From: Dickeya aquatica
GTDB lineage: Bacteria; Pseudomonadota; Gammaproteobacteria; Enterobacterales; Enterobacteriaceae
Direction of reading: 5' to 3'
Assembly (NCBI RefSeq): GCF_900095885.1
Contig: NZ_LT615367.1
Location: 2,542,001 to 2,606,000, forward strand
Length of the DNA: 64,000 bases
Part shown: positions 42,368 through 59,251 of the stretch, in pieces
Layout: every line of letters begins with the position of its first letter
Numbering within the stretch: the stretch's first letter is position 1
Translations under genes and position numbers: made by a program
Notes under the pieces: generated by a model
The model's database searches: none
Seen by the model: only the letters and a program-made list of their open reading frames with translations
Told to the model about the DNA's origin: nothing

Positions 42368-42432
42368 CGACAGTCGGCCTGACCATGACACACCAGGCTT
42401 GTGCCGCTTTTTATTACACCGGGAACCACAAT

Positions 42433-42894
42433 ATGCAAAAACCGCAAAGTCTTAAACTCGCGCTGACAACAGCATTGCCTGCGTTAAGCTCGCAGTTTCA
42501 ATTCCGTATTCAGGATGGCGAAATTGCCGCGTTACAGGAACCTTCACTGTCATTCGAGTACCGTTACCAGCTACTGCTGACGCTGAGCAACTTTACTGAC
42601 AATCCCGATACCTTGTTTGTCACCGTGCTGTTATGGGTGCGCCAGAACCAGCCCGAATTGTTAACGCGTGACAGTATTCGCCAGCAAGGTATCAGTTTCA
42701 CTATCGACCACAACCCGGACGGTTCTTCCTCCTTGTCAGTGCGACTGAAATTGACCGAACGTCATCGTGTACGGGAAGAAAACCAGACACTGCGTGTTAA
42801 CTACGAGCCAGAACCGCAACCACCAGAACCGGTAACACGGCCAACCTCGTTGTACATCGGCGGCGAACTCGTCAGCCAGTGGCGCAGCAACTAA
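42433..42894 (+). CDS. R: Tail completion protein R
   Basis: 153 residues from MQKPQSLKLAL. P2 gpR family: SFEYRYQLLLTLSNFTD, LLWVRQNQPELL and a Pro-rich stretch before GGELVSQW. gpR and gpS complete the neck end of the tail. Gene S is absent here, which fits a tail that never joins a head. An in-frame upstream ATG (42385) has no ribosome site. Confidence 0.85.
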   Translation: MQKPQSLKLALTTALPALSSQFQFRIQDGEIAALQEPSLSFEYRYQLLLTLSNFTDNPDTLFVTVLLWVRQNQPELLTRDSIRQQGISFTIDHNPDGSSSLSVRLKLTERHRVREENQTLRVNYEPEPQPPEPVTRPTSLYIGGELVSQWRSN

Positions 42895-43080
42895 GCCCAC
42901 ACCGGCTTCATCTTACCGTTGTCAGTTGCGATGCAAGGCAGCCGTATGCTGACGCTAACAACGACATGACCTATCGACCACCCGGCATTCCACCCCGGAG
43001 CACGCGGCCAAGGGTTGTCCCCGGCGCTGCACAACACCGGAATATTGTTTGCCCCTGTGGGAAAACGCATGCTTCTAACC

Positions 43081-43707
43081 ATGAATACATACGAATATCT
43101 CTCCGAAATCCAGCGCGCACTGCGCAACCTGATCCGTATTGGCGTTATCACTGATGTCGATACCCAACAGGCGCGTTGCCGCGTGCAAACCGGTGGCATC
43201 GTCACCGGATGGCTCCACTGGCTGTCTCGTCGTGCGGGAAGTTCCCGTGAATGGTGGGCACCGTCGGTGGGTGAACAGGTACTCATCCTTTCGATTGGAG
43301 GTGAACTGAATAGCGCATTCGTCTTACCGGGTATTTACAGCGAGCAGCACCCCGCGCCATCAACATCCGCAGACGCCTGCCACATCCACTTTCCTGACGG
43401 CGCAGTGCTGGAATATGAACCCGCCACCAGCGCGCTGACCGTGACAGGCATCAAAACCGCCACCGTGGTGGCATCCGAATCGGTCTCGGTTACCACCCGT
43501 AATGTCACCATCAAGGCCAGCGAACGTATTCGGCTCGATACACCAGAAGTGGTCTGTACCGGCAAGCTGATTGTGCAGCAAGGTGGCAGCATCACCGGCA
43601 GCGTGACCCACTCCGGCGGAAGTTTCAGCTCGAACGGCGTGGTGGTACATACCCATCAGCACAGTGGTGTGAAAGGTGGTGGCGATACAACAGGAGGGCC
43701 GCTATGA
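43081..43707 (+). CDS. V: Baseplate spike protein V
   Basis: 208 residues from MNTYEYLSEIQRALRNLIR, aligned with P2 gpV; upstream in-frame starts are not homologous. An OB-fold follows (ARCRVQTGGIVTGWLHWLSRRAG, WWAPSVGEQVLILSIGGELNSAFVLPGIYS), then a beta-helix spike and a His-containing tip, HTHQHSGV, which binds an iron ion in P2. The trimer pierces the target cell membrane. Overlaps W by ATGA. Confidence 0.95.
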   Translation: MNTYEYLSEIQRALRNLIRIGVITDVDTQQARCRVQTGGIVTGWLHWLSRRAGSSREWWAPSVGEQVLILSIGGELNSAFVLPGIYSEQHPAPSTSADACHIHFPDGAVLEYEPATSALTVTGIKTATVVASESVSVTTRNVTIKASERIRLDTPEVVCTGKLIVQQGGSITGSVTHSGGSFSSNGVVVHTHQHSGVKGGGDTTGGPL

Positions 43708-44054
43708 CGCGTGCGTCTTACAGCGGTATGAACCGCAATACCGGTATGCAATTAAGCGAAGTGGAAAATTTGCGCCAGAGCGTGCGTGACATCCTGATAA
43801 CCCCACAGGGCAGCCGGGTGATGCGCCGCGATTACGGCTCATTGCTTTCCACACTCATCGACCAGCCACAAACGCCGGCGCTGAAATTACAGGTTCAGGC
43901 CGCCTGCTATGTGGCACTGCTGAAATGGGAACCCCGGCTGACGCTGACGTCAATTGCCATGGAGAGCCATTATGACGGCCAGCTGATTGTGGATATTTCC
44001 GGCTACCTGTCTGACAGCGGCAGCCCACTTTCATTAACTATTCCCGTGAGTTGA
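43704..44054 (+). CDS. W: Baseplate wedge protein W (gp25-like)
   Basis: 116 residues with the gp25/lysozyme-like motif LRQSVRDILITPQGSRVMRRDYGS. It starts sheath polymerisation at the baseplate. It is coupled to V. Confidence 0.94.
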   Translation: MTRASYSGMNRNTGMQLSEVENLRQSVRDILITPQGSRVMRRDYGSLLSTLIDQPQTPALKLQVQAACYVALLKWEPRLTLTSIAMESHYDGQLIVDISGYLSDSGSPLSLTIPVS

Positions 44055-44058
44055 GATC

Positions 44059-45573
44059 ATGCCTATTATCGATTTAAGTCAATTACCCGCCCCCAGCGTG
44101 GTCGAAACGCTGGATTATGAAACCCTGCTGGCAACCCGAAAGGAAACGTTGCTCTCTCTTTATAGCGCCGATGAGCGAGAGGCCATCGCCCGGGCCCTGA
44201 CGCTGGAGTCAGAGCCACTGGTCAAGCTGTTGCAGGAAAATGCCTATCGGGAGCTGTTATTGCGCCAGCGCATTAACGAAGCGGCCAAGGCCGGAATGCT
44301 GGCGTTCGCCCTGGGCAACGATCTTGACCAGTTGGGCGCTAACGTTAACGTCACACGTTTGGTTATTACACCGGCAGATACCAGCACCTTACCGCCAACC
44401 GCTGCGGTGCTGGAATCGGACACCGATTTCCGTTTGCGCATCCAGCAAGCCTATGAAGGCTTCAGTGTCGCAGGATCTATCGGTGCCTATCAGTTTCATG
44501 GGCGCAGCGCCAGCGGGCAGGTTGCTGATATTTCAGTCATCAGCCCGGGCCCGGCTCAGGTGCTGGTTTCGGTGTTATCAAGAGAAAAAGACGGTACTGC
44601 CAGTGATGCGCTGATTGCGACCGTCAACACGGCACTGAACGCCGAGGACGTACGCCCGGTCGCTGACCGGGTTACGGTCAAATCCGCAGTGATAGTGCCT
44701 TATGATATCAGTGCCACGCTCTATCTCTACCCAGGGCCGGAAGCTGAACCTATCCGTGCGGCGGCCGAGAAAAAACTCCAGACCTACGTCAGCAGTCAGC
44801 ATCGCTTAGGCCGCGATATTCGCCGTTCAGCGATTTACGCCGCCTTGCATGTTGAAGGGGTACAGCGTGTCGAACTGACCCGGCCGGCGGCAGATATCGT
44901 TCTGGACAATACCCAGGCCTCATACTGCACCGGTTATGCCTTGACGCTGGGGGAACGGATGAGTAAAAGCCCCTTATTACCACCGGGCTCCTCGTCGCTG
45001 GAACATAACGTTGCCGTCACCGGAGCCAGTCTGGAGCAACTCCCGCTCCCGCTACGACAGCTCTGGAACCCAGACAACTGCCCGGTCGAACTGTTACCGT
45101 ATCTGGCCTGGACAGTCTCCGTTGACCGCTGGGACGAGAGCTGGTCTGAGGCCATCAAGCGAAAAGTCATCAAAGATGCTTTTTTCATTCATCGCCACAA
45201 AGGCACTATCGGAGCACTTCGTCGGGTTGTCGAACCGTTGGGCTACCTGATTCGCATCAAAGAGTGGTGGCAAACGGGTGATGCGCCGGGCACCTTCAGG
45301 CTGGACATCGGTATTCAGGAGTCGGGTATCACCGAGGCGTCATTTCAGGAGCTTGAGCGCCTGATTGCGGATGCCAAGCCAGTCAGCCGCCAGCTACTGG
45401 GGCTGAACATCAATCTCGATACCACCGGCAGCGTTTCGCTCGGTGCCGGCTCTTACAGCGGCGATGAACTCACCATCTACCCCTATTTCCCTGAAACTAT
45501 TAATGTTTCTGGCGACACCTTCACGGGGGGAGCGGTACACCTTATCGATGACTTATATGTCAGCGGGGGGTAA
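44059..45573 (+). CDS. Baseplate protein J fused to I
   Basis: 504 residues in one frame. Residues 1 to about 300 are P2 gpJ (wedge; ERRINEA-type core, YEGFSVAGSIGAYQFH, GRDIRRSAIYAALHVEGVQRVEL). From Met at about 301 (MSKSPLLPPGSSSLEHNVA) it is gpI, which joins wedge to fibre (LRQLWNPDNCP, FFIHRHKGTIGALRRV). In P2 J and I are separate with an ATGA overlap. Removing one G from the GGGGG run at 44948-44954 restores a J stop (TGA) overlapping the I ATG. So the fusion depends on one base and could be real or an error. Confidence 0.9.
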   Translation: MPIIDLSQLPAPSVVETLDYETLLATRKETLLSLYSADEREAIARALTLESEPLVKLLQENAYRELLLRQRINEAAKAGMLAFALGNDLDQLGANVNVTRLVITPADTSTLPPTAAVLESDTDFRLRIQQAYEGFSVAGSIGAYQFHGRSASGQVADISVISPGPAQVLVSVLSREKDGTASDALIATVNTALNAEDVRPVADRVTVKSAVIVPYDISATLYLYPGPEAEPIRAAAEKKLQTYVSSQHRLGRDIRRSAIYAALHVEGVQRVELTRPAADIVLDNTQASYCTGYALTLGERMSKSPLLPPGSSSLEHNVAVTGASLEQLPLPLRQLWNPDNCPVELLPYLAWTVSVDRWDESWSEAIKRKVIKDAFFIHRHKGTIGALRRVVEPLGYLIRIKEWWQTGDAPGTFRLDIGIQESGITEASFQELERLIADAKPVSRQLLGLNINLDTTGSVSLGAGSYSGDELTIYPYFPETINVSGDTFTGGAVHLIDDLYVSGG

Positions 45574-45800: not shown

Positions 45801-47224
45801 ATGAGTACAAAATACTTTGCTTTACTGACTAACACCGGCGCGGCAAAGCTGGCGAATGCCACCGCGCTAGGTGGCCATCTGACGATTACGCAGATGGCCA
45901 TCGGTGATGGAGGTGGCAGCCTGCCAACGCCATCACCCAGCCAGACCAGTCTGGTCAATGAAAAACGCCGTGCTCCGCTCAATGCCTTGAGTATCGACCC
46001 CAAAAATACTAACCAAATCATCGCTGAGCAGGTTATCCCTGAAAACGAGGGCGGCTGGTGGATTCGGGAAATTGGTCTGTATGACAGCGATGGCGATATG
46101 GTGGCGGTGGCAAACTGTGCGGAAACGTACAAACCGCAAATGCAGGAAGGCTCCGGCCGGGTGCAAACCGTTCGTATGATTTTGATAGTCAACAATGCCG
46201 ATACCGTCACGCTAAAAATTGACCCCGCGGTGGTGCTGGCAACGCGTAAATATGTTGATGATAAAACTATCGAGGTCAAAGCCTATACCGACAGCAAACT
46301 CACCGATCACCTTGCAGCGACCAACCCTCACCCACAGTATGCGCCACTGCTTAGCCCCGCACTGACCGGCACGCCTACTGCGCCAACCGCCGATAAAAGC
46401 AGTAACTCAACCCAGTTGGCCACAACCGCGTTTGTCAAAAATACCGCGCTGACTAAAGAGCAAAACGGTGCGGATATCGTCGATAAAACCGCATTTCTCG
46501 CAAACCTGGGTTTAAGCGACAAGTTCGCCGGGCGCTATTTACAGACCATTAAATACACCGCTTCCGGCCAATATACCTCGAGTCCAGGCACGCAAAAAAT
46601 CATTGTCGAAATGGTCGGAGGGGAGCGAGCGGTGCCAGTGCGCCAACGGTTAATGCCGACACCTATACCGCCTCAGGCGGCGGTGGCGGTGGCGGTGGCT
46701 ATCTGAAATTTTTAGTTGATCTTAAACAAATCACCCTCAAAAACACTACGATCACTATTGGCGCTGGCGGCGCATCCGTTACAGGATCAAATGGTAATGC
46801 AGGTGGGATCTCTTGGTTTGGTAAGCAAGCTGCTACAGGTGGAGCCACAGGTAACATTTGTTATTTGTCACAGCAGTTCTATGCAGTTAATGGCCCAAGT
46901 ACCGTATCTTTTCCGGGTAATCCAGGTAGAGGCATTTTTGCACCCGAAACAGGGTATGTACTAATTACGGCAAAAAATGGACATTATGGTGGCTGGGGGT
47001 ATCTGGGGCCGTCTGGTCAATTAGGTGGATATGGCGGTGCCAGTCACTTCTCGGGAAATGGCATGATGACCGGTAATGCAGATTCTGGAAGTAATGGTGC
47101 AATCGCGGGGCCAGGAGCTGGTGGCGGCGGAACATGCAGCGCACCCGGCGGTACAGTTAATACATCAGCCAAACCCTCAGGTGCTGGTGCTGATGGCATT
47201 GTTATTATTCATGAGTATTCATAA
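45801..47224 (+). pseudogene. H: Tail fibre H, frame broken by one base
   Basis: The N-terminal part (1-300) is P2 gpH-like: KYFALLTNTGAAKLANATALG, AIGDGGGSLPTPSPSQT, EQVIPENEGGWWIREIGLYD, PHPQYAPLLSPALTGTPTAPTA. Codons at 46491-46520 include the left crossover site (FLANLGLSD). Just after VEMVGG (46614-46622) one G is missing from a G run. With GGGGG the frame continues through a Gly-rich receptor-binding C-terminus (SAPTVNADTYTASGGGGGG..., FWFGKQ-type, GAIAGPGAGGGG) to IVIIHEYS at 47224. The C-terminal half lies in the invertible segment. Confidence 0.85.
46495..46520 (+). other. Left crossover site of the invertible segment
   Basis: A Hin/Gin-type 26-bp site: TTCTCGCAAACC, central TG, then GGTTTAAGCGAC. 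It lies in frame inside H. The same 25 bases occur inverted at 50388-50412. Compare hix/gix, which also have AAACC-NN-GGTTT cores. Confidence 0.88.
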
Positions 47225-47454
47225 TGATCAAAAAATACGCCCTGATAAAAAATGGCAGCTACTATGTGGAAAATACCCTTGTTGCCGATGAAAATTTTAC
47301 GATACAAGGTTATTATCTGATTGAAATCAGCGAGGAAAACCCGGCACAGCCTGGCGCATATTACAATCCAACTGATGGCAAATTTTACGGTGATGCGGCT
47401 TACACCACGGATTACCGAACCCCACCATTCCCATTGAACGGCTTTGCACAATAG
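47224..47454 (+). CDS. Small tail-fibre-associated protein
   Basis: 76 residues starting at the last base of the H stop (one-base overlap). YALIKNGSYYVENTLVADEN, then GAYYNPTDGKFYGD resembles the short proteins that follow Gly-rich fibres in tail loci and may be a minimal chaperone replacing Tfa. Not assigned to a family. Confidence 0.6.
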   Translation: MIKKYALIKNGSYYVENTLVADENFTIQGYYLIEISEENPAQPGAYYNPTDGKFYGDAAYTTDYRTPPFPLNGFAQ

Positions 47455-47488
47455 CGTTCTCTTTTCGGGACTCTGATTCTGTCAGAAC

Positions 47489-47522
47489 AACAGTCTGGAG
47501 TTGACCTTCAGGCTGTTTTTTC
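47489..47522 (+). terminator. Terminator of the first fibre module
   Basis: AACAGTCTGGAG pairs with CTTCAGGCTGTT (two G-U pairs in RNA) around TTGAC and is followed by TTTTTCTC. Confidence 0.7.
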
Positions 47523-47704
47523 TCTCTCGTCATGCCTGCCACGGGTTTCGCCTTCTCACCGGATATCCCCCTCTCTGTTGCATTGGCCCCATGCCGGTGA
47601 AACATCTTTCGCTATAATTATTTAGCCAAAGTATTTCCCCATCGGAAATAATTGTTTACAGTGTAAGCCATTTTGAACATTGATGGCTTGATGGGAGTAA
47701 CAGC

Positions 47705-49048
47705 GTGGCAGGTGATAGCGCAATTGATGTACGCCAGTTGATTAATCTGCGCCCGGTCGGGGCTTACCAGAAACTGATTATTTTTCTTTGCTTTTGTATT
47801 ATTGCGCTGGATGGCATGGACATTGCCATTATGGGGTTTATCGCCCCGTCGCTTAAAGCGGCCTGGGGATCGGGTAATGCAGAGCTGGCGGTGGTTATCA
47901 GTGCCGCGCTCATTGGCCTGGCTATCGGTGCCATGGTTTCCGGGCCACTGGCGGACTGGCGCGGGCGCAAAATGATTATTATCGCCAGCGTGCTGTTGTT
48001 CGGTCTGTGGACTCTACTGGCTGCATTTTCACAGAATGTGCACCACATGGTGATGTTTCGTTTTCTGACCGGTCTTGGGCTGGGTGCGGCGATGCCGAAC
48101 GTCGGCACACTGGTATCCGAATTTGCACCGGAGAAAAAACGCTCTTTTATCATCACGGTCGTGTTTTGCGGCTTCAGCTTTGGCGCGGCAAGCGGCGGTT
48201 TTGCGGCTTCATGGATGATCCCAAACTGGGGCTGGCATTCCGTATTACTGATGGGGGGAATATTACCCTTACTGTTGTTGCCTTTTTTATGGGCCAGATT
48301 GCCGGAATCAGTACAATTTCTGGTCAGCAAACGCGCCTCTTCTGCCGAAATTCATGCGATTATCAACAAGGTCGCGCCGGGAGCCAGCCTGCCTGATAGT
48401 CAATTTGTGATGCCTGCCACGCGTAAAGAAGCCGCTTTTGCCATGCAACTGGTGCTGTCGCGTCCTTATCGTTTCGGCAGTTTTATGCTGTGGGCGGCTA
48501 TTTTTGCGGGTTTATTTATGGTGTATCTGCTGGGAAGCTGGTTACCTACCGTTATCAAAGACGCAGGAATGAGTGTCACCCAGGCAACGATAATTACGGC
48601 ATTGTATCAAGCCGGTGGCACGTTTGGCTCACTGTTTGCGGGCTGGCTGATGGATAAGGTGAACCCGCATTGGGCCCTGGGAATAATTTATGCCACAGGC
48701 GGTGTTGCCACCGCCATGATTGGCGTTACGCATGATTATTTCGTGTTACTGGCGCTGGTTGCGTTTAGCAGCGGCTTTTGCCTCAACGGCGCAAACACAG
48801 GCATGAATGCGTTATCCGCACGTTATTATCCAACATCTGCGCGGGCCACCGGGTCAGGTTGGATGCATGGCATCGGACGTATGGGCGCTATCATGAGTGC
48901 TTTTGTCGGGGCTCAGGTCGTCAGTATGGGCTGGGGGTTAACCACGCTGTTTGCCGTTCTGGCAATCCCTGCCTTGTTGACCGCGTTGATGATTTTAGCA
49001 AAAGGCCAGTTTGGCTATCACTCACGGCCTGTTACCGGGCTGGCTTGA
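47705..49048 (+). CDS. MFS transporter, aromatic acid:H+ symporter family
   Basis: 447 residues from a GTG after GGGAG. Twelve helices. The AAHS signature is clear: IIALDGMDIAIMGFIAPSLKAAWG, GPLADWRGRKMIIIASVLLFG with the loop-2 motif, and FRFLTGLGLGAAMPNVGTLVSEFAPEKKR. Relatives (PcaK, MhpT) import protocatechuate, 4-hydroxybenzoate or phenylpropanoids, sensible substrates for a plant pathogen; the actual one is unknown. It is a chromosomal-type gene lying within the invertible fibre segment, with its own promoter presumably at 47523-47690. Confidence 0.88.
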   Translation: MAGDSAIDVRQLINLRPVGAYQKLIIFLCFCIIALDGMDIAIMGFIAPSLKAAWGSGNAELAVVISAALIGLAIGAMVSGPLADWRGRKMIIIASVLLFGLWTLLAAFSQNVHHMVMFRFLTGLGLGAAMPNVGTLVSEFAPEKKRSFIITVVFCGFSFGAASGGFAASWMIPNWGWHSVLLMGGILPLLLLPFLWARLPESVQFLVSKRASSAEIHAIINKVAPGASLPDSQFVMPATRKEAAFAMQLVLSRPYRFGSFMLWAAIFAGLFMVYLLGSWLPTVIKDAGMSVTQATIITALYQAGGTFGSLFAGWLMDKVNPHWALGIIYATGGVATAMIGVTHDYFVLLALVAFSSGFCLNGANTGMNALSARYYPTSARATGSGWMHGIGRMGAIMSAFVGAQVVSMGWGLTTLFAVLAIPALLTALMILAKGQFGYHSRPVTGLA

Positions 49049-49089
49049 TACTGCCGCAACGGTATCGTATTCCTCTGCTGTTAAGTAAA

Positions 49090-49108
49090 CGCCCGGCCAG
49101 GCCGGGCG
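49090..49108. terminator. GC-rich hairpin between MFS gene and smrA
   Basis: CGCCCGGC-CAG-GCCGGGCG, between convergent genes. No strong T run on either side; probably a shared terminator. Confidence 0.5.
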
Positions 49109-49135
49109 CGTTGAGACAATCAACGATTAAGCATA

Positions 49136-49705
49136 TCAGCGACATCGCCTGGCATGTCGTTCACGGTTTTCAAGCTTCGCCTGCTCCGATTTTCGCAGCG
49201 ACACATAGCACGCGCCAGACCCGCCGTGAAACGGCTGTGCCGGGCAAAACGCCTGCACCGTGTCAAACTGTTGCAGCCAGCGGAACAAATAATTGCGCAC
49301 CACGTTGTTATGCGCATTATCACGACTACTTTTACCATGAATAATCAAAAGATTACGTAAACTATCATGCTGCGCCTGTCGCATGAACGTAAATAACAAT
49401 TGTCTGCAATCTGCAACCGGTTTTCGCAACAAATTGAGGCTGGCATCCAGCGTGTATTTTCCCTGGCGCAGTTTATCCACCACACCTTGCTGCACACCTT
49501 CTCGCTTGAACTCCAGCGGCGTATCACATGAAAACAGGTCGAGAAATCCGGTAATCAAAACATTGTCTGGCTCCGGCTCTGGCACACGATGCACCTGTGC
49601 GTTTGCAGTGGCGGGTTTAAGGTGCATAACGGTGACGGACGGTTTCAGCGGTTTGACATCACCCATCTCATTCATAAACAGGGCTTTTTCTTCTGGAAGC
49701 ATCAT
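49136..49705 (-). CDS. smrA: Smr-domain DNA endonuclease SmrA
   Basis: 189 residues, close to E. coli SmrA (YdaL): LITGFLDLF, LEFKREGVQQGVVDKLRQGKYTLDASLNLLRKPV, then the Smr core LLIIHGKSSRD and GGSGACYVSLRKSEQAKLENRERHARR. Smr domains of this clade nick DNA. AGGAGAG precedes the double ATG. An ordinary core gene in enterobacteria, so its presence between two fibre modules needs explanation. Confidence 0.9.
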   Translation of the reverse strand: MMLPEEKALFMNEMGDVKPLKPSVTVMHLKPATANAQVHRVPEPEPDNVLITGFLDLFSCDTPLEFKREGVQQGVVDKLRQGKYTLDASLNLLRKPVADCRQLLFTFMRQAQHDSLRNLLIIHGKSSRDNAHNNVVRNYLFRWLQQFDTVQAFCPAQPFHGGSGACYVSLRKSEQAKLENRERHARRCR

Positions 49706-49872
49706 GTCTCTCCTGCGTGGGGCAACCTGCCGCTACTATAACGAGGGCCACAAAAAATATCACCTCGCTTTCAGCCAATACCCATACACGATGGGGAGCG
49801 CTCATGGTGTATGGGGTGAGTAATATTGATAGGCTAATCGGTATGCCTTGTGACCTCAACTCACCTGAAGAC

Positions 49873-50390
49873 TCAGGCAGCCTTTACGATGTAGCTAAAG
49901 GCGATGTTGCGGGGGCGAATGCTGATCCAATTCGGTTTGTCACTATTAAAGACCATATTGTTAGAGGTGCCAGAAACGCCATTATCGACAGATACCGTTG
50001 ATGTTATATCCAAAGAATTGGGAGCATAACACTTGCTATTATTGGGAGAAAAACCTGTAGCCATACTGTCTGGCTCTGAAAATGGCATACCGATAGAAAC
50101 GTTCGAGCCATGTATATCAGAGCCATTGTAATCCATCATTGCCGTACGCAAATGGGTCGCTTTTTGTGCGGATAATACACCCGCCCCGCATCCACACCGC
50201 GCCCATCATCCCAGCCACGAATAAATTCTCCTCGCAGGTCTGGCAGCACGCCAGCAGGATAGGCCCGTGCCAATTTCGGATAAAGGGTTTTATCAAACGC
50301 TTGACCATTACATTTCAACCAACCGGCGGCGGGGTTGCCTGTGGCCACGGTAACGGGATACCGGCCAAATCCCCTGTTTTTAATACATCG
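49873..50390 (-). pseudogene. Alternative tail-fibre C-terminus, silent orientation
   Basis: Headless fibre module on the minus strand, beginning in the right crossover site. It reads LSDVLKTGDLAGIPLPWPQATP, then AGWLKCNGQAFDKTLYPKLA, then LPDLRGEFIRGWDDGRGVDAGR, then LSAQKATHLRTAMMDYNG and the closing RNIAFSYIVKAA. Two one-base deletions break it, near 50322-50334 and near 50172-50180. It is a collar-domain fibre unlike the Gly-rich module 1. Inversion would join it to H. No Tfa gene follows it on its strand; smrA comes next. Confidence 0.8.
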
Positions 50391-50412
50391 CTTAAACCCA
50401 GGTTTGCGAGAA
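50387..50412 (-). other. Right crossover site of the invertible segment
   Basis: Inverted copy of the left site, with 25 of 26 positions identical (last base differs). It ends 44 bp before the invertase start codon, the usual arrangement in gin and pin systems. Confidence 0.88.
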
Positions 50413-50455: not shown

Positions 50456-51010
50456 ATGTTGATTGGTTATGCCAGGGTCTCCACCAGCGATCAAAATACT
50501 GAATTACAGAAAAATGCATTAATCAGCGCAAAATGTGAGCTGATTTTTGAAGACCAGGCCAGCGGCAAACACGCGCGTCGGCCCGGCCTTAAACGGGCAA
50601 TGCGCAAACTCAAACCCGGAGATACATTTATCGTCTGGAAGCTCGACCGGCTCGGGCGCAGCGTGCGTGATTTGATAACCATGGTGTCGGACTTGCAAGC
50701 CAGAGGCATTCATTTTCGCAGCCTCACAGATGCCATTGATACCTCAACACCCGCCGGGCGCTTCTTTTTCCATGTGATGAGTGCGCTGGCAGAAATGGAA
50801 CGTGAGCTGATTGTCGAGCGCACCCGTGCCGGGCTGGCCGCAGCCAGGGCAGCAGGCCGTATTGGCGGCAGGCGGCGTATTATGACGCCTGAAACCCTTG
50901 AACGGGCCAAAATGCTGCTGGATAACGGTGCCACTCGCTGGCAAATCGCTAATATTATTGGTGTATCAGAAAAAACCATTTATAAATATTTTCCGGTGGG
51001 GAATATTTAG
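50456..51010 (+). CDS. Serine DNA invertase, Pin/Gin/Hin family
   Basis: 184 residues. Catalytic Ser near position 9-10 in GYARVSTSDQN; the conserved FEDQASGKHARRPGL, VWKLDRLGRSVRDL and AEMERELIVERTRAGLAAARAAGRIGGR follow. The C-terminal helix-turn-helix (TRWQIANIIGVSEKTIYKY) binds the 26-bp sites. It inverts DNA between oppositely oriented sites, usually with Fis and an enhancer located in the 5' part of the invertase gene. AGGAGG precedes the ATG. Confidence 0.95.
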   Translation: MLIGYARVSTSDQNTELQKNALISAKCELIFEDQASGKHARRPGLKRAMRKLKPGDTFIVWKLDRLGRSVRDLITMVSDLQARGIHFRSLTDAIDTSTPAGRFFFHVMSALAEMERELIVERTRAGLAAARAAGRIGGRRRIMTPETLERAKMLLDNGATRWQIANIIGVSEKTIYKYFPVGNI

Positions 51011-51173: not shown

Positions 51174-51812
51174 ATGAAAAAATACCACTCCCCTCGCTCG
51201 CTCAATTTAACCCTCGGTAAAGAGAGCCTGTATAAAGATAACCACATCCATATTGGCACCGTATCACTTGCCTGCTGCAAGTGTCAGGATGATAACGCGG
51301 TGACGCCAGCCCCGGTAACACCGGTTGAAAGCCTGAAAGATCTTATCGGTATGCCGCAACCCTGGCCGCTGGCAGACGCGCCGGAAGGCTGGCTGAAATG
51401 TAATGGCCAGGCCTTTGATACTGCAAAATATCCACAGCTGGCGAAACTCTACCCCACCGGAAAATTACCCGATTTACGCGGTGAGTTTATTCGTGGCTGG
51501 GATGACGCACGAAGTATAGATGCTGATCGTCAGCTCTTATCTGAACAAACGGATGCGATTCGTAATATCACAGGCAATCTGTATTACGGGGTGGATGCTG
51601 ACGGCCCGCTCAATGAAAGCTATTTCAGCGGCGCACTGTATTACGACCTCAAGGCAATAGTAAAAGACACCAAAAATAACGGGTCATGGACTAACAGCAA
51701 TGTAGCGAATGCATGGGCACCTGCCATTTTTGATGCCTCTCGCGTCGTTCCTACTGCTGCTGAAAACCGCCCGCGCAATGTCGCCTTTAGCTATATCGTC
51801 AAAGCAGGCTAA
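51174..51812 (+). CDS. Tail-collar fibre protein (second, fixed fibre)
   Basis: 212 residues. The collar module (IGMPQPWPLADAPEGWLKCNGQAFD, LPDLRGEFIRGWDD, NRPRNVAFSYIVKAG) is close to the silent fibre module in the inverted segment. Instead of the long H N-terminus it has its own 40-residue head (MKKYHSPRSLNLTLGKES..., CCKCQDD). It lies outside the crossover sites, so it is expressed in either orientation. It may be a separate short fibre or a captured C-terminus. Confidence 0.8.
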   Translation: MKKYHSPRSLNLTLGKESLYKDNHIHIGTVSLACCKCQDDNAVTPAPVTPVESLKDLIGMPQPWPLADAPEGWLKCNGQAFDTAKYPQLAKLYPTGKLPDLRGEFIRGWDDARSIDADRQLLSEQTDAIRNITGNLYYGVDADGPLNESYFSGALYYDLKAIVKDTKNNGSWTNSNVANAWAPAIFDASRVVPTAAENRPRNVAFSYIVKAG

Positions 51813-51814
51813 TT

Positions 51815-52426
51815 ATGACAATACCTAATGGCAATACCACCGAACTTAATGAACAGGGGCTGAGTACCCATGCCGGGTATTTTCAGGTCTACCACATTGA
51901 CCCACAAACGCGCGAATATATCGGCAGCAGCCGTGAATACCTGATGGAGGGGGTCGGTATCCCGGCACACAGTTTTGCCGATGCACCGCCGGATGCCACG
52001 CCAGAGCAGGCTATCGTGCGCAGTCAGGATGGCCTGGGCTGGGACAGCGTGGTGGATTACCGTGGTCGCACAGCCTATGACAAACAAACGCGTCAGGCCA
52101 CTCCCCTCACTCAACCGGGTGCATTAGCGGATAACCTGACACTGTTGGTGCCGCAAACCGAGTGTGATGTCTGGCAAGGTGAACAGTGGCAAACAGATAC
52201 CAAGGCCATGCAGGCGCTACAGGTTAACGCCGCCAGCGCTCAACGCAGTGAGTACCTTGCCCGTGCGCAGCAGCAACTGGTCGTATTGCAGGATGCGGTT
52301 GATCTGAATATCGCCACCGAGCAAGAAACCGCTGCACTGAAAGCCTGGAAAACCTATCGGGTTCAGCTAAACCGGATTGATGTCTCAAACGCACCGGACA
52401 TTGACTGGCCTGCCATGCCTGCCTGA
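51815..52426 (+). CDS. Tail fibre assembly protein (Tfa family)
   Basis: 203 residues, with the Tfa/gpG C-terminal pattern: WDSVVDYRGRTAYDKQT, LTLLVPQTECDVWQGEQWQTDT, LDAVDLNIATEQETAALKAWKTYRVQLNRID and the closing WPAMPA. Chaperone that helps the fibre trimerise and may stay at its tip. Two bases after the second fibre gene. It may serve all three fibre C-termini. Confidence 0.9.
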   Translation: MTIPNGNTTELNEQGLSTHAGYFQVYHIDPQTREYIGSSREYLMEGVGIPAHSFADAPPDATPEQAIVRSQDGLGWDSVVDYRGRTAYDKQTRQATPLTQPGALADNLTLLVPQTECDVWQGEQWQTDTKAMQALQVNAASAQRSEYLARAQQQLVVLQDAVDLNIATEQETAALKAWKTYRVQLNRIDVSNAPDIDWPAMPA

Positions 52427-52662
52427 TAACCTCTGCGTTTCCCCCTCCTCCACGGATGCCGTTGCCTGATGCGCGGCATCCGTTTTTTTATTGTATTCCC
52501 CGCCTGTGATACCGAAAAAAACCACAACCCATTGTTTTATTTGAAAATAAAAAAAATAACTGTTCATGTCTGTTGTGCCATCGGATAGCAAACCCCATTC
52601 GCATGCCTTCTGTTTCGCAACAAGGCACTATGACTCGCACCCCACAACAGGAGACATTCTTG
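52427..52662 (+). promoter_or_regulatory. Leader of the FI-D operon
   Basis: The AT-rich 236-bp gap must hold the late promoter of the sheath operon. It contains TGTTGTGCCATC (52571-52582), identical to 41944-41955 before the other tail block. A variant TGTTGTCC lies at about 45629 before H. Candidate site for the Ogr-type activator, although the P2 site has a different written consensus (TGT-N12-ACA). Confidence 0.35.
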
Positions 52663-53832
52663 ATGAGTGATTATCATCACGGTACGCAGGTCGTCGAAAT
52701 CAACGACGGAACCCGCGTCATTTCAACAGTATCAACGGCGATCGTCGGTATGGTTTGCACCGCACCGGACGCAGACGCCACCACTTTTCCACTTAACACC
52801 CCTGTACTGATTACCGATGTACTGGCCGCCGTTGGTAAAGCAGGTAAAACCGGTACGCTGGCCGCTGCGCTGCAAGCTATCGGCGACCAAACCAAACCGG
52901 TAACGGTGGTTGTGCGCGTTGCCACCGGCGCGAACGAAGCTGAAACCGTGTCCAACATCATCGGCGGTGCCGATGCCAACGGAAAATATACCGGCCTGAA
53001 AGCGCTGCTGGATGCGCAGGCAGTCACGGGCGTGAAACCTCGGATTCTGGGCGTTCCCGGTCTGGACTCACTGCCAGTTGCGACCGCACTGGCCTCCATC
53101 TGCCAGTCACTGCGTGCATTTGGCTACGTCAGTGCGTATGGCTGTAAAACGCAGTCTGATGCCATCAAATACCGTGGCAACTTCAGCCAGCGTGAACTGA
53201 TGGTGATTTGGCCTGATTTTATCGCCTGGGATACCGCGGCCAATGCCAGTAACACCGCATACGCGACCGCTCGTGCACTGGGCCTGCGTGCCAAAATCGA
53301 CCAGGAAACCGGCTGGCACAAAACCCTGTCTAACGTCGGCGTGAACGGTGTCACCGGCATTTCTGCCAGCGTGTACTGGGATCTGCAAACCATCGGCAGC
53401 GACGCTGACTTGCTCAACGAAGCGGGCGTCACCACGCTGGTACGTAAAGACGGTTTCCGCTTCTGGGGCAACCGCACCTGCTCCAGCGATCCGCTGTTCT
53501 TGTTTGAAAACTACACCCGTACTGCCCAGGTACTGGCTGACACCATGGCCGAAGCCCACATGTGGGCGGTGGACAAACCGGTAAGCGCAACGCTTATCCG
53601 TGACATCGTTGAAGGCATTAAAGCCAAATTCCGCGAACTGAAATCCAACGGCTACATCATCGATGCAGACTGCTGGTTCGATGAAAACGCCAACGATAAA
53701 GACACGCTGAAGGCCGGCAAATTGTATATCGATTACGAATATACCCCGGTGCCGCCACTGGAAAACCTCACGCTGCGTCAGCGCATCACCGACAAGTATC
53801 TGGTGAACCTGGCCGCATCCGTTAAAAGCTAA
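52663..53832 (+). CDS. FI: Tail sheath protein FI
   Basis: 389 residues from MSDYHHGTQVVEIN, with AGGAGA upstream; upstream starts in the same frame lack ribosome sites. P2 FI family: GVNGVTGISASVYWDL, GFRFWGNRTCSSDPLFLFENYTRTAQVLADTMAEAHMWAVD. The sheath contracts and drives the tube into the target cell. Confidence 0.96.
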   Translation: MSDYHHGTQVVEINDGTRVISTVSTAIVGMVCTAPDADATTFPLNTPVLITDVLAAVGKAGKTGTLAAALQAIGDQTKPVTVVVRVATGANEAETVSNIIGGADANGKYTGLKALLDAQAVTGVKPRILGVPGLDSLPVATALASICQSLRAFGYVSAYGCKTQSDAIKYRGNFSQRELMVIWPDFIAWDTAANASNTAYATARALGLRAKIDQETGWHKTLSNVGVNGVTGISASVYWDLQTIGSDADLLNEAGVTTLVRKDGFRFWGNRTCSSDPLFLFENYTRTAQVLADTMAEAHMWAVDKPVSATLIRDIVEGIKAKFRELKSNGYIIDADCWFDENANDKDTLKAGKLYIDYEYTPVPPLENLTLRQRITDKYLVNLAASVKS

Positions 53833-53846
53833 GGAGCGACTGACTC

Positions 53847-54365
53847 ATGGCACTGCCACGCAAACTTAAATACCTCAACCTGTTCAACGACGGTATGAGC
53901 TACATGGGCCAGGTGCACTCTGTCACCCTGCCGAAACTGACCCGCAAACTGGAAAACTACCGTGGCGGCGGTATGCATGGCGCCGCACCGGTAGACTTCG
54001 GTCTGGACGATGAAGCACTGATGCTGGAGTGGAGCATGGGCGGTCTGCCGGATACCACTTTCTGGAGCCAGTATGCCCTGCCGGGCGCTGATGCAGTTCC
54101 GTTGCGCTTTGCCGGTTCTTACCAGCGCGATGACACCGGTGATGTCACTGCCGTTGAAATCGTACTGCGTGGTCGTCACAAGTCTATCGACAGTGGCGAG
54201 TCCAAGCAGGGTGAAGAGACTGAAGTGAAAATTTCCACCCAGTGCACTTACTACAAACTGATTATTGATGGCGTCGAAATGATCGAAATCGACACCATTA
54301 ACATGATTGAAAAAGTCAACGGCGTTGACCGTCTGGCACAGCACCGCCGTAATATCGGCCTGTAA
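53847..54365 (+). CDS. FII: Tail tube protein FII
   Basis: 172 residues, exactly the P2 FII length. ALPRKLKYLNLFNDGMSYMG, LTRKLENYRGGGMHG, and a C-terminal KVNGVDRLAQHRRNIGL. It stacks as hexamers to form the inner tube. 14 bp after FI. Confidence 0.96.
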   Translation: MALPRKLKYLNLFNDGMSYMGQVHSVTLPKLTRKLENYRGGGMHGAAPVDFGLDDEALMLEWSMGGLPDTTFWSQYALPGADAVPLRFAGSYQRDDTGDVTAVEIVLRGRHKSIDSGESKQGEETEVKISTQCTYYKLIIDGVEMIEIDTINMIEKVNGVDRLAQHRRNIGL

Positions 54366-54391
54366 TCGGTCTAATCGATCTCACCCTTTTT

Positions 54392-54409
54392 GGCCAGCCA
54401 AGGCTGGCC
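54392..54409 (+). terminator. Hairpin between FII and E
   Basis: GGCCAGCC-AA-GGCTGGCC is a perfect 8-bp stem followed by TGTTTCC. It is probably a partial terminator or mRNA stabiliser that makes tube and sheath more abundant than the E-T-U-D products. Confidence 0.55.
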
Positions 54410-54438
54410 TGTTTCCCCCTTAAACAGGAGTTTTTATT

Positions 54439-54729
54439 ATGACGGCTGACGCAATTGTACAAGACAACGTGATAACCCTGAGCACCCCGGTTAAACGAGG
54501 TGAAACTCTGCTCGAAACTATTACTGTGATTAAGCCAACCGCTGGCACTTTGCGAGGCATCGGCCTGGCTGCGCTGGCAAATGCTGACGTTGAAGCATTG
54601 ATAAAAGTGCTACCACGCATGACCTACCCTTCTCTTACCGAGGCCGATGTTGCTGCACTGGATCTGTCGGATCTACTGCTGTTCGCCGGTAAGGTGATCG
54701 GTTTTTTGGCTCCGAACTCGGCACGGTAA
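54439..54729 (+). CDS. E: Tail protein E (tape-measure chaperone)
   Basis: 96 residues, P2 gpE-like (VITLSTPVKRGETLLETITVIKPTAGTLRGIGL, ALLKVLPRMTYP-type core, LDLSDLLLFAGKVIGFL). Binds the tape measure before tube assembly. Its last third contains a slippery heptamer, so a fraction of ribosomes shifts into E'. AGGAG lies upstream. Confidence 0.9.
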   Translation: MTADAIVQDNVITLSTPVKRGETLLETITVIKPTAGTLRGIGLAALANADVEALIKVLPRMTYPSLTEADVAALDLSDLLLFAGKVIGFLAPNSAR

Positions 54730-54881
54730 CGTTGCCGAAGGGCCTCACCGTTGACGACCTGATGGCGGACATCGCCGTGGTTTTCCACTGGCCGCCATCA
54801 GAACTTTATCCCATGGGCCTGGCAGAGCTCGTTCGCTGGCGGGCCAAAGCATTAGAACGAAGTGGACAAACCAATGAGTAA
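54439..54881 (+). CDS. E': E+E' frameshift product
   Basis: If ribosomes slip by -1 at 54702-54708, translation continues GSELGTVTLPKGLTVDDLMADI, VVFHWPPSELYPMGLAELVRWRAKALERSG and ends at TAA 54879-54881. This is the P2 E+E' arrangement, analogous to lambda G-GT. E' overlaps the T start by 8 bases. Confidence 0.85.
54702..54708 (+). promoter_or_regulatory. Programmed -1 ribosomal frameshift site
   Basis: T-TTT-TTG in the correct phase relative to the E codons (GGT TTT TTG). It is the same heptamer as in P2 gene E. The E' frame is open from here for about 57 codons. Confidence 0.88.
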
Positions 54882-57258
54882 ACTCTCCAGTCTCAGTGGC
54901 CTGTTGGCGAAAGCCGCGCAAATGGGAAGTCAGCTATACCAGGCACAAAGTGGTGTGGACTCTACCCAGGAAGATGAGCGTACCGCCAGTCAGCGTATGG
55001 ATGCGCTGGCTTCATTGATTGATGGCGCAACAAAACAAGCTGAGGACATATCAAACATTGCCGATCAGGCGAAAGAAACCGCAGATGCAGGCAAAAAAGT
55101 AGGCCGCCGTTATCAGGCCTTAAAACGTCTTCGCCGCATGAAAGCGGCCAAACAGAACAATCCGCCAAGTGACGAAACTGCACCAGATGATGCAACATCT
55201 GGCGAACCGGACACAGAAAAGCCCGTAGCAACCAAACGCAGTCCTACACAAAAGCTGCGTAAGACGCTCTCTCAAACCGCGAAATCGGGTGAGATGGTCA
55301 AGGATTTCGGCGAAAAAGGGGCTGAACTCTCCAAAAGCTTGAAGGATAAAGTGACTGAACTGGGGGAAATATTTGCTCCAGCCAAAGATACCCCACTCGC
55401 ACCAGAGGCCAGCACTAAGGCATCGTTAACCCCTTCACCAGAGGCTAATACCCAGGTTAATGGAGTAACATCCGCTAACTCAACGAGTTATACCAACAGC
55501 ACCAATACCAATACCAATACCAATACCAATACCAGCAATAGCGAATCTTCATCTTCACAGCTAGCGGAATCGCTCGCGAAGCCAATAACCCGTCAGCAAA
55601 CGCCCCCTGCTGACGATGATGCATCTCCTGCTGAAAGAGTAACATCAGCCTCACCATTATCATCAAATGGAAGCGATACCATCAGTGTCCCTGCATTGCA
55701 GGCTCGTCTGGCTATTGCCCTGCTACGATCTGAACTTTCCTATCTCAGCAATACGGTGATGTCCGTGCTGGGTCACAACCAGACATCCGTTGAAGAGTTT
55801 CGTTCTTCAATATCCACCGTAGATCCCGCAGCAAAATCTGCTGCACTTGGGATCAATAAAACGCAGTCAATGCTCAATCTGTTGCGCGAGACACCGGCAC
55901 AACAACCAGTGACGCCTTTAACAATCCCAAGCGAAGACAGCCTTCTCAACACACCTGATGCAATATTAAATCCTGCCACACAAAGCCAGAGTGAGGAAAA
56001 CATATACATCAGCACGATATCAGCAAACACAGAGAACCAGAGCGGTGATCAAACAAACCTTCTTCAAGAGACACTGGCTAATTTGCTGACCCCCGTCATT
56101 ACCGTTAACTGCATATGTTCACATGAACAAAGTACCGCTATCGCCGCCACCGGTATCAATGCTGCACCCACCGCTGCGCTCAATACAGGTAATACAGGTA
56201 ATGCAGGTAATGCAGGTAATGCAGGTAATGCAGGTAATGCAGGTAATGCAGGTAATGCAGGTAATGCAGGTAATGCAGGTAATGCAGGTAATGCAGGTAA
56301 TGCAGGTAATAATACCCCGGCACCACAAGTAGATAGCGTTCGTCAACTGAGTGATGCCGCACAACAATGCCAATCCAGCCTTGAGAATTGTGGTCAGTCG
56401 TCATCAGGTATTATCAATACGATAATCAGTGTGTTATCTGTGGGTGAAAGTGTTTTTGGTGTCATTGGTTCAATTGGCACCCTGGTCGGTACAGTATCAG
56501 AAGGGGTTGGTGGTATTATTGCAGCTTTCGAGTTCCTTTCTCCGATATTTATGGCAATTGGCAGTGCGATTACTGCTGCGCTATCAACACTTACCCTTCC
56601 CATTATTGGTATTATTGCATTAGTCGCGGCGGGCGCAGCTTTAATATATAAATACTGGGAACCAATTGGAAATTTCCTTTCCAGTGTATTCAATGGATTC
56701 ATTCAATCATTAGGCCCTGTTGAGGAACTATTCGCTCGCGTCAAATCTATTTTTGATGGTTTACTGGGTATCGTAGGTAGTATCGTCTCTTATTTCAAAG
56801 AGATGATTGCGCCAATAAAAATGTCCCAAGAGGAACTAGAAAAATTGAGAAAGATAGGCGAATACGTTGGAAAATTCCTCGGTGAGGTATTAATGGCACC
56901 ATTCAAGCTAGTCAACAAAATGCTAGATGGCGCAGAATGGTTGAAAAATACAGCAAAGAATACCTTTTCCGGTGGAAATGATAAAGATAAAAAAGAAGGG
57001 GAAAATGGCGCGAATGCAAATTCTGAGTTATCGAAACCTGATACAGAAACCATCGGTCAAAAATATACGCCAATCAAATCAGGGGATAATAAAAACTTCC
57101 AAGATAATAGCGTTATTAACAACAACGTTCAGATTCATGTGCCTGCGGGGAGCAATCCAGATCAAATTAAACAACACGTTGATGAATCTCTACAGAATCA
57201 GAGACAAAGCAAAACAGATTACAGCCAAAGCATGATGAGTGCTGAATTACTAGGATAA
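54874..57258 (+). CDS. T: Tail tape measure protein T
   Basis: 794 residues from MSKLSSLSGLLAKAAQ, overlapping E' as in P2 (an upstream in-frame ATG at 54862 is inside E'). The length sets tail length. The N-terminal half is Ser/Thr/Ala-rich and helical with two low-complexity tracts (NT repeats near 210-220, NAG repeats 437-478). Hydrophobic helices at about 515-595 (FGVIGSIGTLVG, IGSAITAALSTLTLPIIGIIALVAAGAALIY) may enter the target membrane. The C-terminus is polar. More AT-rich than FI/FII. Confidence 0.92.
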   Translation: MSKLSSLSGLLAKAAQMGSQLYQAQSGVDSTQEDERTASQRMDALASLIDGATKQAEDISNIADQAKETADAGKKVGRRYQALKRLRRMKAAKQNNPPSDETAPDDATSGEPDTEKPVATKRSPTQKLRKTLSQTAKSGEMVKDFGEKGAELSKSLKDKVTELGEIFAPAKDTPLAPEASTKASLTPSPEANTQVNGVTSANSTSYTNSTNTNTNTNTNTSNSESSSSQLAESLAKPITRQQTPPADDDASPAERVTSASPLSSNGSDTISVPALQARLAIALLRSELSYLSNTVMSVLGHNQTSVEEFRSSISTVDPAAKSAALGINKTQSMLNLLRETPAQQPVTPLTIPSEDSLLNTPDAILNPATQSQSEENIYISTISANTENQSGDQTNLLQETLANLLTPVITVNCICSHEQSTAIAATGINAAPTAALNTGNTGNAGNAGNAGNAGNAGNAGNAGNAGNAGNAGNAGNAGNNTPAPQVDSVRQLSDAAQQCQSSLENCGQSSSGIINTIISVLSVGESVFGVIGSIGTLVGTVSEGVGGIIAAFEFLSPIFMAIGSAITAALSTLTLPIIGIIALVAAGAALIYKYWEPIGNFLSSVFNGFIQSLGPVEELFARVKSIFDGLLGIVGSIVSYFKEMIAPIKMSQEELEKLRKIGEYVGKFLGEVLMAPFKLVNKMLDGAEWLKNTAKNTFSGGNDKDKKEGENGANANSELSKPDTETIGQKYTPIKSGDNKNFQDNSVINNNVQIHVPAGSNPDQIKQHVDESLQNQRQSKTDYSQSMMSAELLG
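55501..55533 (+). repeat. 6-bp tandem repeat in T
   Basis: Five consecutive ACCAAT units plus a partial one, encoding alternating Thr-Asn. Confidence 0.85.
56182..56307 (+). repeat. 9-bp tandem repeat in T (14 units)
   Basis: Two AATACAGGT units are followed by twelve identical AATGCAGGT units, encoding (NTG)2(NAG)12. Identical units of whole codons can expand or contract by slippage without breaking the frame. Confidence 0.95.
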
Positions 57259-57272
57259 AGAGGACAACTATC

Positions 57273-59056: not shown

Positions 59057-59251
59057 ATGATGCATTGTCCTCTGTGCCGTCATGCCGCTCACGCCCGTTC
59101 CAGCCGCTATTTATCGGAGAACACCAAGGAGCGCTACCATCAGTGCACTAACGTAAATTGCGGCCATACCTTTGTCACCATGGAAGCGATTACCCGCTCC
59201 ATCATGGTGCCAGGTAAAACCGAACCGGTTGAAAGCGAACGCCGCCCATAA
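59057..59251 (+). CDS. ogr: Ogr/Delta-type zinc-finger activator
   Basis: 64 residues from MMHCPLCRHAAHARSSRYLSENTKERYHQC. C-x2-C ... C-x4-C zinc ligands (CPLC, CTNVNC) and the family's SRYLSE segment. Ogr proteins contact the RNA polymerase alpha subunit and turn on P2 late (tail) promoters. AAGGTGA precedes the ATG. Confidence 0.93.
   Translation: MMHCPLCRHAAHARSSRYLSENTKERYHQCTNVNCGHTFVTMEAITRSIMVPGKTEPVESERRP

What the first reader, a model, noticed from the sequence alone, without database searches (positions are those of the whole stretch)
46495..50412. Invertible tail-fibre segment that carries an MFS transporter and smrA
Seen: TTCTCGCAAACC-TG-GGTTTAAGCGA at 46495 recurs inverted at 50388-50412, 25 bases identical, with the AAACC-NN-GGTTT core of hix/gix sites. 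The left copy is in frame in H, and the right copy opens a fibre C-terminus on the other strand. A Pin/Gin-type invertase starts 44 bp to the right. Known: such systems switch fibre specificity (Mu G, P1 C, e14 P segments) and carry only fibre and Tfa genes. Odd: between the two C-termini lie an aromatic-acid MFS transporter and smrA, both chromosomal-type genes. Each flip would reverse them, so host gene expression could be coupled to tail target choice.
Basis: partly seen in the sequence, partly recalled or inferred. Interest (0 to 1): 0.92.

Follow-up and report, generated by a model that had tools for sequence, protein, structure and literature searches.

The report
Bacteriocin fibre switch enclosing host genes
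A DNA segment that can probably flip to change the target-recognition fibre of a phage-tail-like bacteriocin in Dickeya bacteria also carries two or three ordinary host genes, and comparison of species suggests these genes ride along under their own control rather than being switched by the flip.

Summary
A perfect 25-bp inverted repeat (46495-46519, 50388-50412) bounds 3,868 bp beside an intact Gin-like serine invertase, inside a P2-type tail cluster without recognised head genes, of the dickeyocin P2D1 kind: a bacteriocin's fibre switch, not a phage's. Invertase, MFS and smrA orthologues occur in 9 of 9 Dickeya genomes held, side by side in the 8 where one contig or scaffold spans them; five also enclose a phytase-like esterase gene. 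One single-contig relative (G004) has the whole segment reversed against both chromosomal flanks, with the smrA-linked fibre fused to H; the homologous fibre is silent in G008. The reversal carries the host genes. Coupled expression is not supported: MFS and smrA have conserved upstream regions, are under purifying selection (dN/dS 0.025-0.114), and terminator-like hairpins precede MFS in 9 of 9 and smrA in 5 of 9 loci (not smrA in the window). Two sister genera hold host genes in the tail cluster without the invertase; Lonsdalea keeps them between phage-type regulators without tail genes. Likeliest: ancient passengers enclosed by a fibre switch. Not shown: flipping within one strain. In the window both fibre ends are frame-broken.

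The parts
36234..37103 (-). phage repressor (cI-like) at the left edge of the cluster
   Evidence: phrog_4 transcriptional repressor, 2e-55; same place in G001, G002, G004-G008 and G022
38906..41062 (+). P2 A-like replication initiator
   Evidence: phrog_91 'nicking at origin of replication', 2e-232
42385..45573 (+). tail genes R, V, W, J and I (J and I run together in this assembly; two overlapping frames in relatives)
   Evidence: PHROGs tail and tail-terminator families; tblastn frames in relatives; P2 gene letters recalled
45801..46494 (+). constant N-terminal part of fibre gene H
   Evidence: PF12571, 8.5e-66; 231 aa at 83-94% identity in the 8 other Dickeya genomes
46495..46519 (+). left recombination site (hix-like)
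   Evidence: exact 25-bp inverted partner; both copies exact in G002, G004, G005, G008, one shared substitution in G001
46520..47224 (+). H-side variable fibre end (glycine-rich); frame lost in this assembly
   Evidence: open in the site's frame for 242 codons in G001 and G002, 69 here
47224..47454 (+). small gene after the fibre end (76 aa, no Pfam or NCBIfam family)
   Evidence: 88% in G001, 66% in G002
47489..47517 (+). terminator-like hairpin between fibre operon and MFS
   Evidence: hairpin in the same place with changed bases in G001 and G002
47631..47682 (+). conserved region upstream of MFS
   Evidence: near-identical in 9 of 9 Dickeya loci; core kept in G022 and Lonsdalea L041
47705..49048 (+). 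MFS transporter (nearest PcaK family, below its cut-off), host-type cargo
   Evidence: dN/dS 0.025-0.053 in 6 pairs
49090..49108 (.). terminator-like hairpin between the convergent MFS and smrA
49136..49705 (-). smrA, host-type cargo; only close copy in the genome
   Evidence: NF033154, 226 bits over cut-off 180; dN/dS 0.072-0.114 in 6 pairs
49735..49763 (-). smrA promoter-like hexamers GTGATA-17-TATAGT
   Evidence: TATAGTA in 9 of 9 Dickeya loci, GTGATATT in 8 of 9
49781..49815 (-). hairpin between silent fibre and smrA, no T-run here
   Evidence: terminator-like in 5 of 9 loci, not in the window
49873..50387 (-). silent alternative fibre end (Collar domain), broken frame in this assembly
   Evidence: PF07484, 1.3e-11; open for 159-187 codons in G001, G002, G004, G005, G008
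50388..50412 (-). right recombination site (hix-like)
50456..51010 (+). Gin/Pin-type serine DNA invertase
   Evidence: orthologue at 89-95% in 8 of 8 other Dickeya genomes
51174..52426 (+). separate Collar fibre gene and tail fibre assembly gene outside the segment
   Evidence: PF07484 and PF02413; PHROGs
52573..58960 (+). tail genes FI, FII, T, U, D
   Evidence: PHROGs sheath, 'head closure' label for FII, tail tape measure, tail proteins; gene letters recalled
59057..59236 (+). Ogr-like activator gene at the right edge
   Evidence: phrog_603 transcriptional regulator, 4e-28; 85% to the Lonsdalea ORF in the same place; name ogr recalled

Best explanation
A Gin-type invertase recombines the two 25-26 bp sites and flips the segment, so that either of two fibre ends is joined to the constant start of H in a P2D1-type tailocin; this changes which bacteria the particle binds. 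The enclosed host genes (MFS, smrA and in some species a phytase-like esterase gene) entered the tail cluster before Dickeya split from its sister genera and were enclosed as passengers. They keep their own upstream regions and flanking hairpins, so the flip reverses them without a programmed effect on them. Shown: anatomy, conservation across the genus, reversal of the whole segment in one relative, selection on the cargo. Inferred: the catalytic act, change of target, present-day flipping, order of events, and neutrality for the cargo.
For: Exact inverted sites and core, both copies also exact in G002, G004, G005, G008, and one shared substitution in both copies of G001. Invertase of the DNA-invertase families, 89-95% in 8 of 8 other Dickeya genomes, dN/dS 0.035-0.058 in 6 pairs. 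Both fibre ends open in the site's frame in 10 of 10 modules of G001, G002, G004, G005, G008. G004: MFS/smrA reversed against H, invertase, rsmF and guaD; its H-side, smrA-linked module matches the silent smrA-linked module of G008 at 89.5% over 901 bp. Hairpins beside the cargo, conserved upstream regions, purifying selection on cargo. Sister genera: G022 has esterase-MFS-smrA and G089 esterase-smrA inside the tail cluster, with no invertase match in the 47.9 and 53.4 kb fetched. Four Lonsdalea loci keep smrA-MFS between cI and guaD with no tail genes found; the Ogr-like gene was read in L041.
Against: No reads were available, and no two strains of one species could be compared with certainty. 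In G004, G005 and G008 the repeat extends to 136-211 exact bases because both fibres share their start, so ordinary homologous recombination could also flip the segment (or mislead a short-read assembly), and the breaks at both sites in the G003, G006 and G007 assemblies can come from the repeat alone. A conserved Fis enhancer pair was not established by a crude consensus. In the window, G001, G002 and G006 the smrA hairpin fails the terminator criterion. The promoter scan of the window found no more sites than its shuffles (9 against 9.1). MFS is broken in G001 and G022. In the window itself both fibre ends are frame-broken.
Confidence: 0.78

Rival explanations
1. Orientation-coupled expression: in one state the SOS-induced tail operon reads on into MFS, in the other into smrA, so fibre choice and a host function switch together.
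For: In the window, G001 and G002 MFS, and in the 8 genomes with a spanning contig or scaffold smrA, lies downstream of a fibre end in the same direction. The tail genes are strongly induced by mitomycin C in D. dadantii 3937 (fibre gene 191-fold at 2 h, PMC12297226 passages). In the window, G001, G002 and G006 the smrA-side hairpin lacks a qualifying T-run.
Against: Terminator-like hairpins stand before MFS in 9 of 9, before the esterase gene in 5 of 5 and before smrA in 5 of 9 Dickeya loci. Control: mononucleotide shuffles of the 200 nt before smrA and 250 nt before MFS gave a hit in 21 and 22 of 360; the esterase gene had no control. Upstream regions of MFS and smrA are conserved, in part also in a Lonsdalea locus without a tail. 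The cargo differs between species and MFS is broken in G001 and G022.
Confidence: 0.1
2. The invertase no longer acts here; the reversal in G004 is an old or RecA-made rearrangement through the shared fibre starts.
For: Shared exact repeats of 136-211 bp in G004, G005, G008. 5 of 6 genomes with continuous sequence, the window included, share one orientation. The window's fibres are broken.
Against: The invertase frame is intact and under purifying selection, dN/dS 0.035-0.058. The 25-bp sites are kept even where the neighbouring DNA of the two copies differs (window, G001, G002: exact repeat of 25-28 bp only). Both alternative ends stay open in the site's frame in five relatives.
Confidence: 0.1
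3. The arrangement is an assembly artefact that joins two loci.
For: The assemblies of G003, G006 and G007 break or carry N gaps exactly at the sites.
Against: The same set of genes lies in continuous sequence in the window, G001, G002, G004, G005 and G008, and a paper on D. solani lists smrA, pcaK and hin in one prophage (PMC6127512, passages).
Confidence: 0.02

Closest known systems
Carotovoricin Er of Pectobacterium, switched by the invertase Ein
   Same: A tailocin of a soft-rot bacterium whose fibre locus is inverted by an invertase (Nguyen 2001, not seen itself; cited in passages of PMC13195805 and PMC13280938).
   Different: Sheath of P2D1 only 34% identical to that of carotovoricin Er (PMC10719855 section 6); no host genes in the segment are mentioned in the passages read (MFS and transporter: 0 occurrences in PMC13195805).
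Dickeyocin P2D1 of Dickeya dadantii 3937
   Same: P2-type tail genes without head genes in Dickeya; our cluster is of this kind. The locus-tag gap between the fibre gene (RS12070) and the side fibre gene (RS12100) would fit an enclosed segment (inference).
   Different: In the main text of three P2D1 papers, searches for invert-, recombinase, endonuclease and transporter words gave 0 occurrences. The inversion and the enclosed host genes are the addition here.
D. solani group I prophage (PMC6127512)
   Same: Reported to hold smrA, pcaK and hin; strain IFB0223 has two copies of about 20 genes, called a duplication (passages).
   Different: No inversion, fibre fusion or recombination site is described in the passages read; the whole word inversion and the words 'tail fib...' do not occur in its main text.
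Mu G, P1 C and e14 P segments
   Same: Serine invertase, short inverted sites, fibre ends exchanged, segments of 1.8-4.2 kb (passages of PMC12529663).
   Different: To my knowledge (recalled) those segments hold fibre and fibre-assembly genes; here host-type genes take up about half of the segment (1,914 of 3,868 bp).

Membership tests
Gin/Hin-type invertible fibre switch | small serine invertase with resolvase domain and HTH, closest to known DNA invertases | tested here: met
   PF00239 + PF02796; DNA-invertase chains 4m6f and 3uj3 at E 4e-69 and 1e-68 (recalled as Gin); phrog_125 DNA invertase 3e-85
Gin/Hin-type invertible fibre switch | two inverted sites of about 26 bp with a two-base centre and AAACC/GGTTT arms (motif recalled) | tested here: met
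Gin/Hin-type invertible fibre switch | constant fibre start with two alternative in-frame ends | tested here: met
   10 of 10 modules in G001, G002, G004, G005, G008 open to a fibre stop in the site's frame; 0 of 2 in the window
Gin/Hin-type invertible fibre switch | both orientations occur | tested here: met
   between species only: G004 reversed in continuous sequence, G006 reversed between N gaps; not tested within a strain
Gin/Hin-type invertible fibre switch | recombinational enhancer with two Fis sites about 48 bp apart (recalled) | tested here: inconclusive
   a full match to a degenerate consensus at +71 of the gene in 8 of 8; one-mismatch pairs 49 bp apart at +301/+350 in 5 of 8 (window, G001, G002, G004, G006); no pair in all 8, no control
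Gin/Hin-type invertible fibre switch | invertase catalyses inversion at these sites | not testable with these tools
   needs a DNA assay
P2D1-type tailocin | P2-like tail genes present, head and DNA-packaging genes absent | tested here: met
   tail families found; among 18 cluster proteins scanned no capsid, portal or terminase family (FII bears the PHROG label 'head closure', and T one weak 'virion structural' hit). The other sense-strand ORFs of 150 aa or more at 36-59 kb are MFS and smrA; ORFs under 150 aa were not scanned
P2D1-type tailocin | kills related bacteria as a particle | not testable with these tools
   reported for D. dadantii 3937 (PMC10719855 abstract), not for this strain

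The most novel reading that the evidence does not exclude
The segment is a true two-state switch for host genes as well: on SOS induction, tail-operon transcription reaches MFS in one state and smrA in the other (most plausibly smrA in the window lineage, whose hairpin lacks a T-run), so a bacteriocin's target choice is bound to a transport or DNA-processing state of its producer.
Probability: 0.1. Interest if true: 0.8.

Novelty: new variant of a known kind. Interest (0 to 1): 0.52.

Why it matters
It gives the P2D1-type bacteriocin of a crop-pathogen genus a specificity switch that I did not find described, so cells of one clone may carry different killing spectra. It suggests that functional host genes, including the only close smrA of each genome, can live for a long time inside a site-specific inversion. 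That makes a general question testable: how genes tolerate being flipped, and whether enclosed host genes stabilise a switch by making its deletion costly.

Tried and rejected
Coupled expression was examined through promoters, terminators and selection and found unlikely. Breaks of draft assemblies at the sites first looked like evidence for mixed orientations; rejected as such after one search showed long shared repeats in three species. Phage records: only one distant match, of the smrA part, so the cargo is not a common phage gene set. IMG/VR: no contig with the MFS; four stretches with the exact site or its one-base variant; among the best 80 of 420 relatives kept for H, seven are Dickeya-like (83-85% identity). 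L180 carries at H a fibre end whose longest matches are the smrA-linked ends of G008, G004 and G003 (89.5, 88.7 and 85.4%), which suggests the reversed state; but fibre ends also change sides between species (G002 against G004, G003 against G005), so this is not counted. The exact site was found in 1 of 149 family genomes, the window's own, so it is not widespread outside the genus sample. A first terminator script had a loop error and missed hairpins; corrected. Fis enhancer scan inconclusive. dN/dS used one aligned piece per gene; for MFS in the window/G001 pair only 260 codons. Structure prediction was not used.
Full report
Observation. The window holds an exact 25-base inverted repeat at 46495-46519 and 50388-50412, with no other match within three mismatches and none in 100 shuffles. 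The left copy is in frame in the fibre gene H, whose first 150 residues match Pfam Phage_tail_fib. The right copy, on the other strand, opens a second fibre end with a Collar domain. Forty-three bases further right starts a serine invertase whose nearest solved relatives are two DNA-invertase chains (recalled as Gin). Between the fibre ends lie an MFS gene and smrA in convergent order.

What the element is. From 36 to 59 kb the cluster has a phage repressor, a P2 A-like protein and P2-like tail genes, and none of the 18 proteins scanned with PHROGs falls in a capsid, portal or terminase family (FII has the label 'head closure', T one weak 'virion structural' hit). The remaining sense ORFs of 150 aa or more are MFS and smrA; smaller ORFs were not scanned. 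This fits the description of dickeyocin P2D1 of D. dadantii 3937, a P2-tail bacteriocin without head genes (PMC10719855: abstract, section 6 and passages). The genus is Dickeya: two of the unnamed same-genus genomes have contigs of the same length, with the gene at the same place, as D. oryzae ZYY5 and D. undicola 2B12 (G002 and G003; L040 and L039).

Conservation. The invertase is 89-95% identical in 8 of 8 other Dickeya genomes. MFS orthologues are found in 9 of 9 genus genomes (in two pieces in G001) and a single close smrA in 9 of 9. MFS, smrA and invertase lie together in the window and in the 7 others where one contig or scaffold spans them; in G003 they are on separate contigs, and the H and invertase contigs end inside the site. 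Both sites are exact in G002, G004, G005 and G008, and G001 has the same single substitution in both copies. In G006 and G007 each site falls in a 100-N gap. The inner segment measures 3,749 to 4,863 bp in the six genomes with continuous sequence, the window included. In G004-G008 it also holds a gene of the Phytase-like Pfam family (PF13449; read in G022); G000-G003 have no match to it at E 1e-60.

Both orientations. Relative to rsmF, H, the invertase and guaD, the order is H-fibre-(esterase)-MFS-smrA-fibre-invertase in the window, G001, G002, G005, G008 and, across gaps, G007. It is reversed in G004 and, across gaps, in G006. G004 is a single contig. Its H-side module, linked to smrA, matches the silent smrA-linked module of G008 at 89.5% over 901 bp. 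So the whole segment, host genes included, has turned round. Against over-reading: in G004, G005 and G008 the two fibres share 136-211 exact bases from the site inwards, so RecA could also do it, and the breaks in drafts do not prove mixed populations. No within-strain evidence was obtainable.

Both fibre ends usable. In G001, G002, G004, G005 and G008 all 10 modules are open in the site's frame for 154-242 codons. In the window the H-side end stops after 69 codons and the silent end after 31, and J and I run into one frame.

Are the host genes switched? The region upstream of MFS has a near-identical block of about 50 bp in 9 of 9 Dickeya loci, with its core kept in G022 and in Lonsdalea L041. 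smrA has TATAGTA in 9 of 9 and GTGATATT in 8 of 9. Hairpins followed by T-runs stand before MFS in 9 of 9, before the esterase gene in 5 of 5 and before smrA in 5 of 9 (misses: window, G001, G002, G006). The scans covered 420, 300 and 330 nt; all the hits counted lie within the 250 nt (MFS) and 200 nt (smrA) used for the control, where mononucleotide shuffles gave a hit in 22 and 21 of 360; the esterase gene had no control. All 9 have a hairpin before smrA. The promoter scan of the window alone found no more sites than its shuffles (9 against 9.1; terminator-like 16 against 8.6), so the promoter claim rests on conservation. dN/dS is 0.025-0.053 for MFS (6 pairs), 0.072-0.114 for smrA (6), 0.055-0.102 for the esterase gene (3) and 0.035-0.058 for the invertase (6). 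MFS is broken in G001 and G022, so it is dispensable in some lineages or misread there.

Origin. G022 (another genus; Musicola is my guess) has I, esterase, MFS, smrA, fibre, Tfa, FI, and G089 (perhaps Prodigiosinella) has several H-fibre-Tfa sets, esterase, smrA, FI; neither has an invertase match in the 47.9 and 53.4 kb fetched. Four Lonsdalea loci have rsmF, cI, smrA, MFS, guaD without recognisable tail genes. In each, short DNA matches remain to the stretch after the A-like gene and to the stretch after D; in L041 the latter is an Ogr-like ORF. MFS and smrA are reversed there relative to the flanks in 4 of 4. In an outgroup (G161) smrA and MFS flank a LysR-type gene beside fnr- and uspE-like genes (gene names by my reading of the ORFs). 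So the host genes probably entered the tail cluster before these genera parted, and a fibre switch encloses them in Dickeya. Whether the switch is ancestral and lost elsewhere, or new in Dickeya, is open; the reversed Lonsdalea pair mildly favours an old switch.

Literature. In the main text of three P2D1 papers the searched words for invertase, inversion, recombinase, transporter and endonuclease do not occur (PMC10719855 read in section 6 and passages, the other two in passages). PMC6127512 lists smrA, pcaK and hin in a D. solani prophage and reports two copies of about 20 genes in strain IFB0223, explained as duplication; the whole word inversion does not occur in it (passages only). PMC13195805 and PMC13280938 describe inverted fibre loci in Pectobacterium and Xenorhabdus tailocins (passages). 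PMC7325237 (passages) has nothing on this locus. A 2025 Mol Ecol paper on these tailocins is not held. The statement that this switch is undescribed rests on searches of an open-access library, whose listings were in part cut short (12 of 471 shown, 20 of 26); supplements and subscription papers were not seen.

Noticed in passing
window 44059-45573, 46520-46706, 49873-50387: Several frame breaks within about 6 kb of the tail cluster (J/I run together, both fibre ends cut short), near short G or C runs; five relatives are open in both fibre ends. Either indel errors of the assembly or decay of the tailocin in this strain.
   Followed up: partly
G089 stretch L286-L288: A related tail cluster without an invertase match carries several tandem sets of H-type fibre and fibre assembly genes before the esterase gene and smrA: multiplication of fibres in place of inversion.
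   Followed up: partly
L041, L042, L043, L064 (Lonsdalea): No tail genes were found while a repressor, smrA, MFS and (read in L041) an Ogr-like activator remain, so phage-type regulators seem to survive without a phage to regulate.
   Followed up: partly
L068, L069, L067, L010 fibre modules: Similar fibre ends lie on the MFS side in one species and on the smrA side in another (G002 against G004, G003 against G005), so fibre ends move between sides independently of the cargo.
   Followed up: partly
G000:C1 at 0.16, 1.73, 1.92, 3.20 and 3.68 Mb: Other fibre pieces 76-78% identical to about 190 bp of the silent fibre lie elsewhere in the same chromosome (six places): a possible pool for exchange.
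   Followed up: no
D. solani IFB0223 prophage (PMC6127512): The published 20-gene duplication with two copies of smrA, pcaK and hin could be real or an assembly product of mixed orientations.
   Followed up: no
window 54862-57258: The tape-measure-like protein carries a collagen-like repeat run (Pfam Collagen at residues 443-484, just above its cut-off).
   Followed up: no
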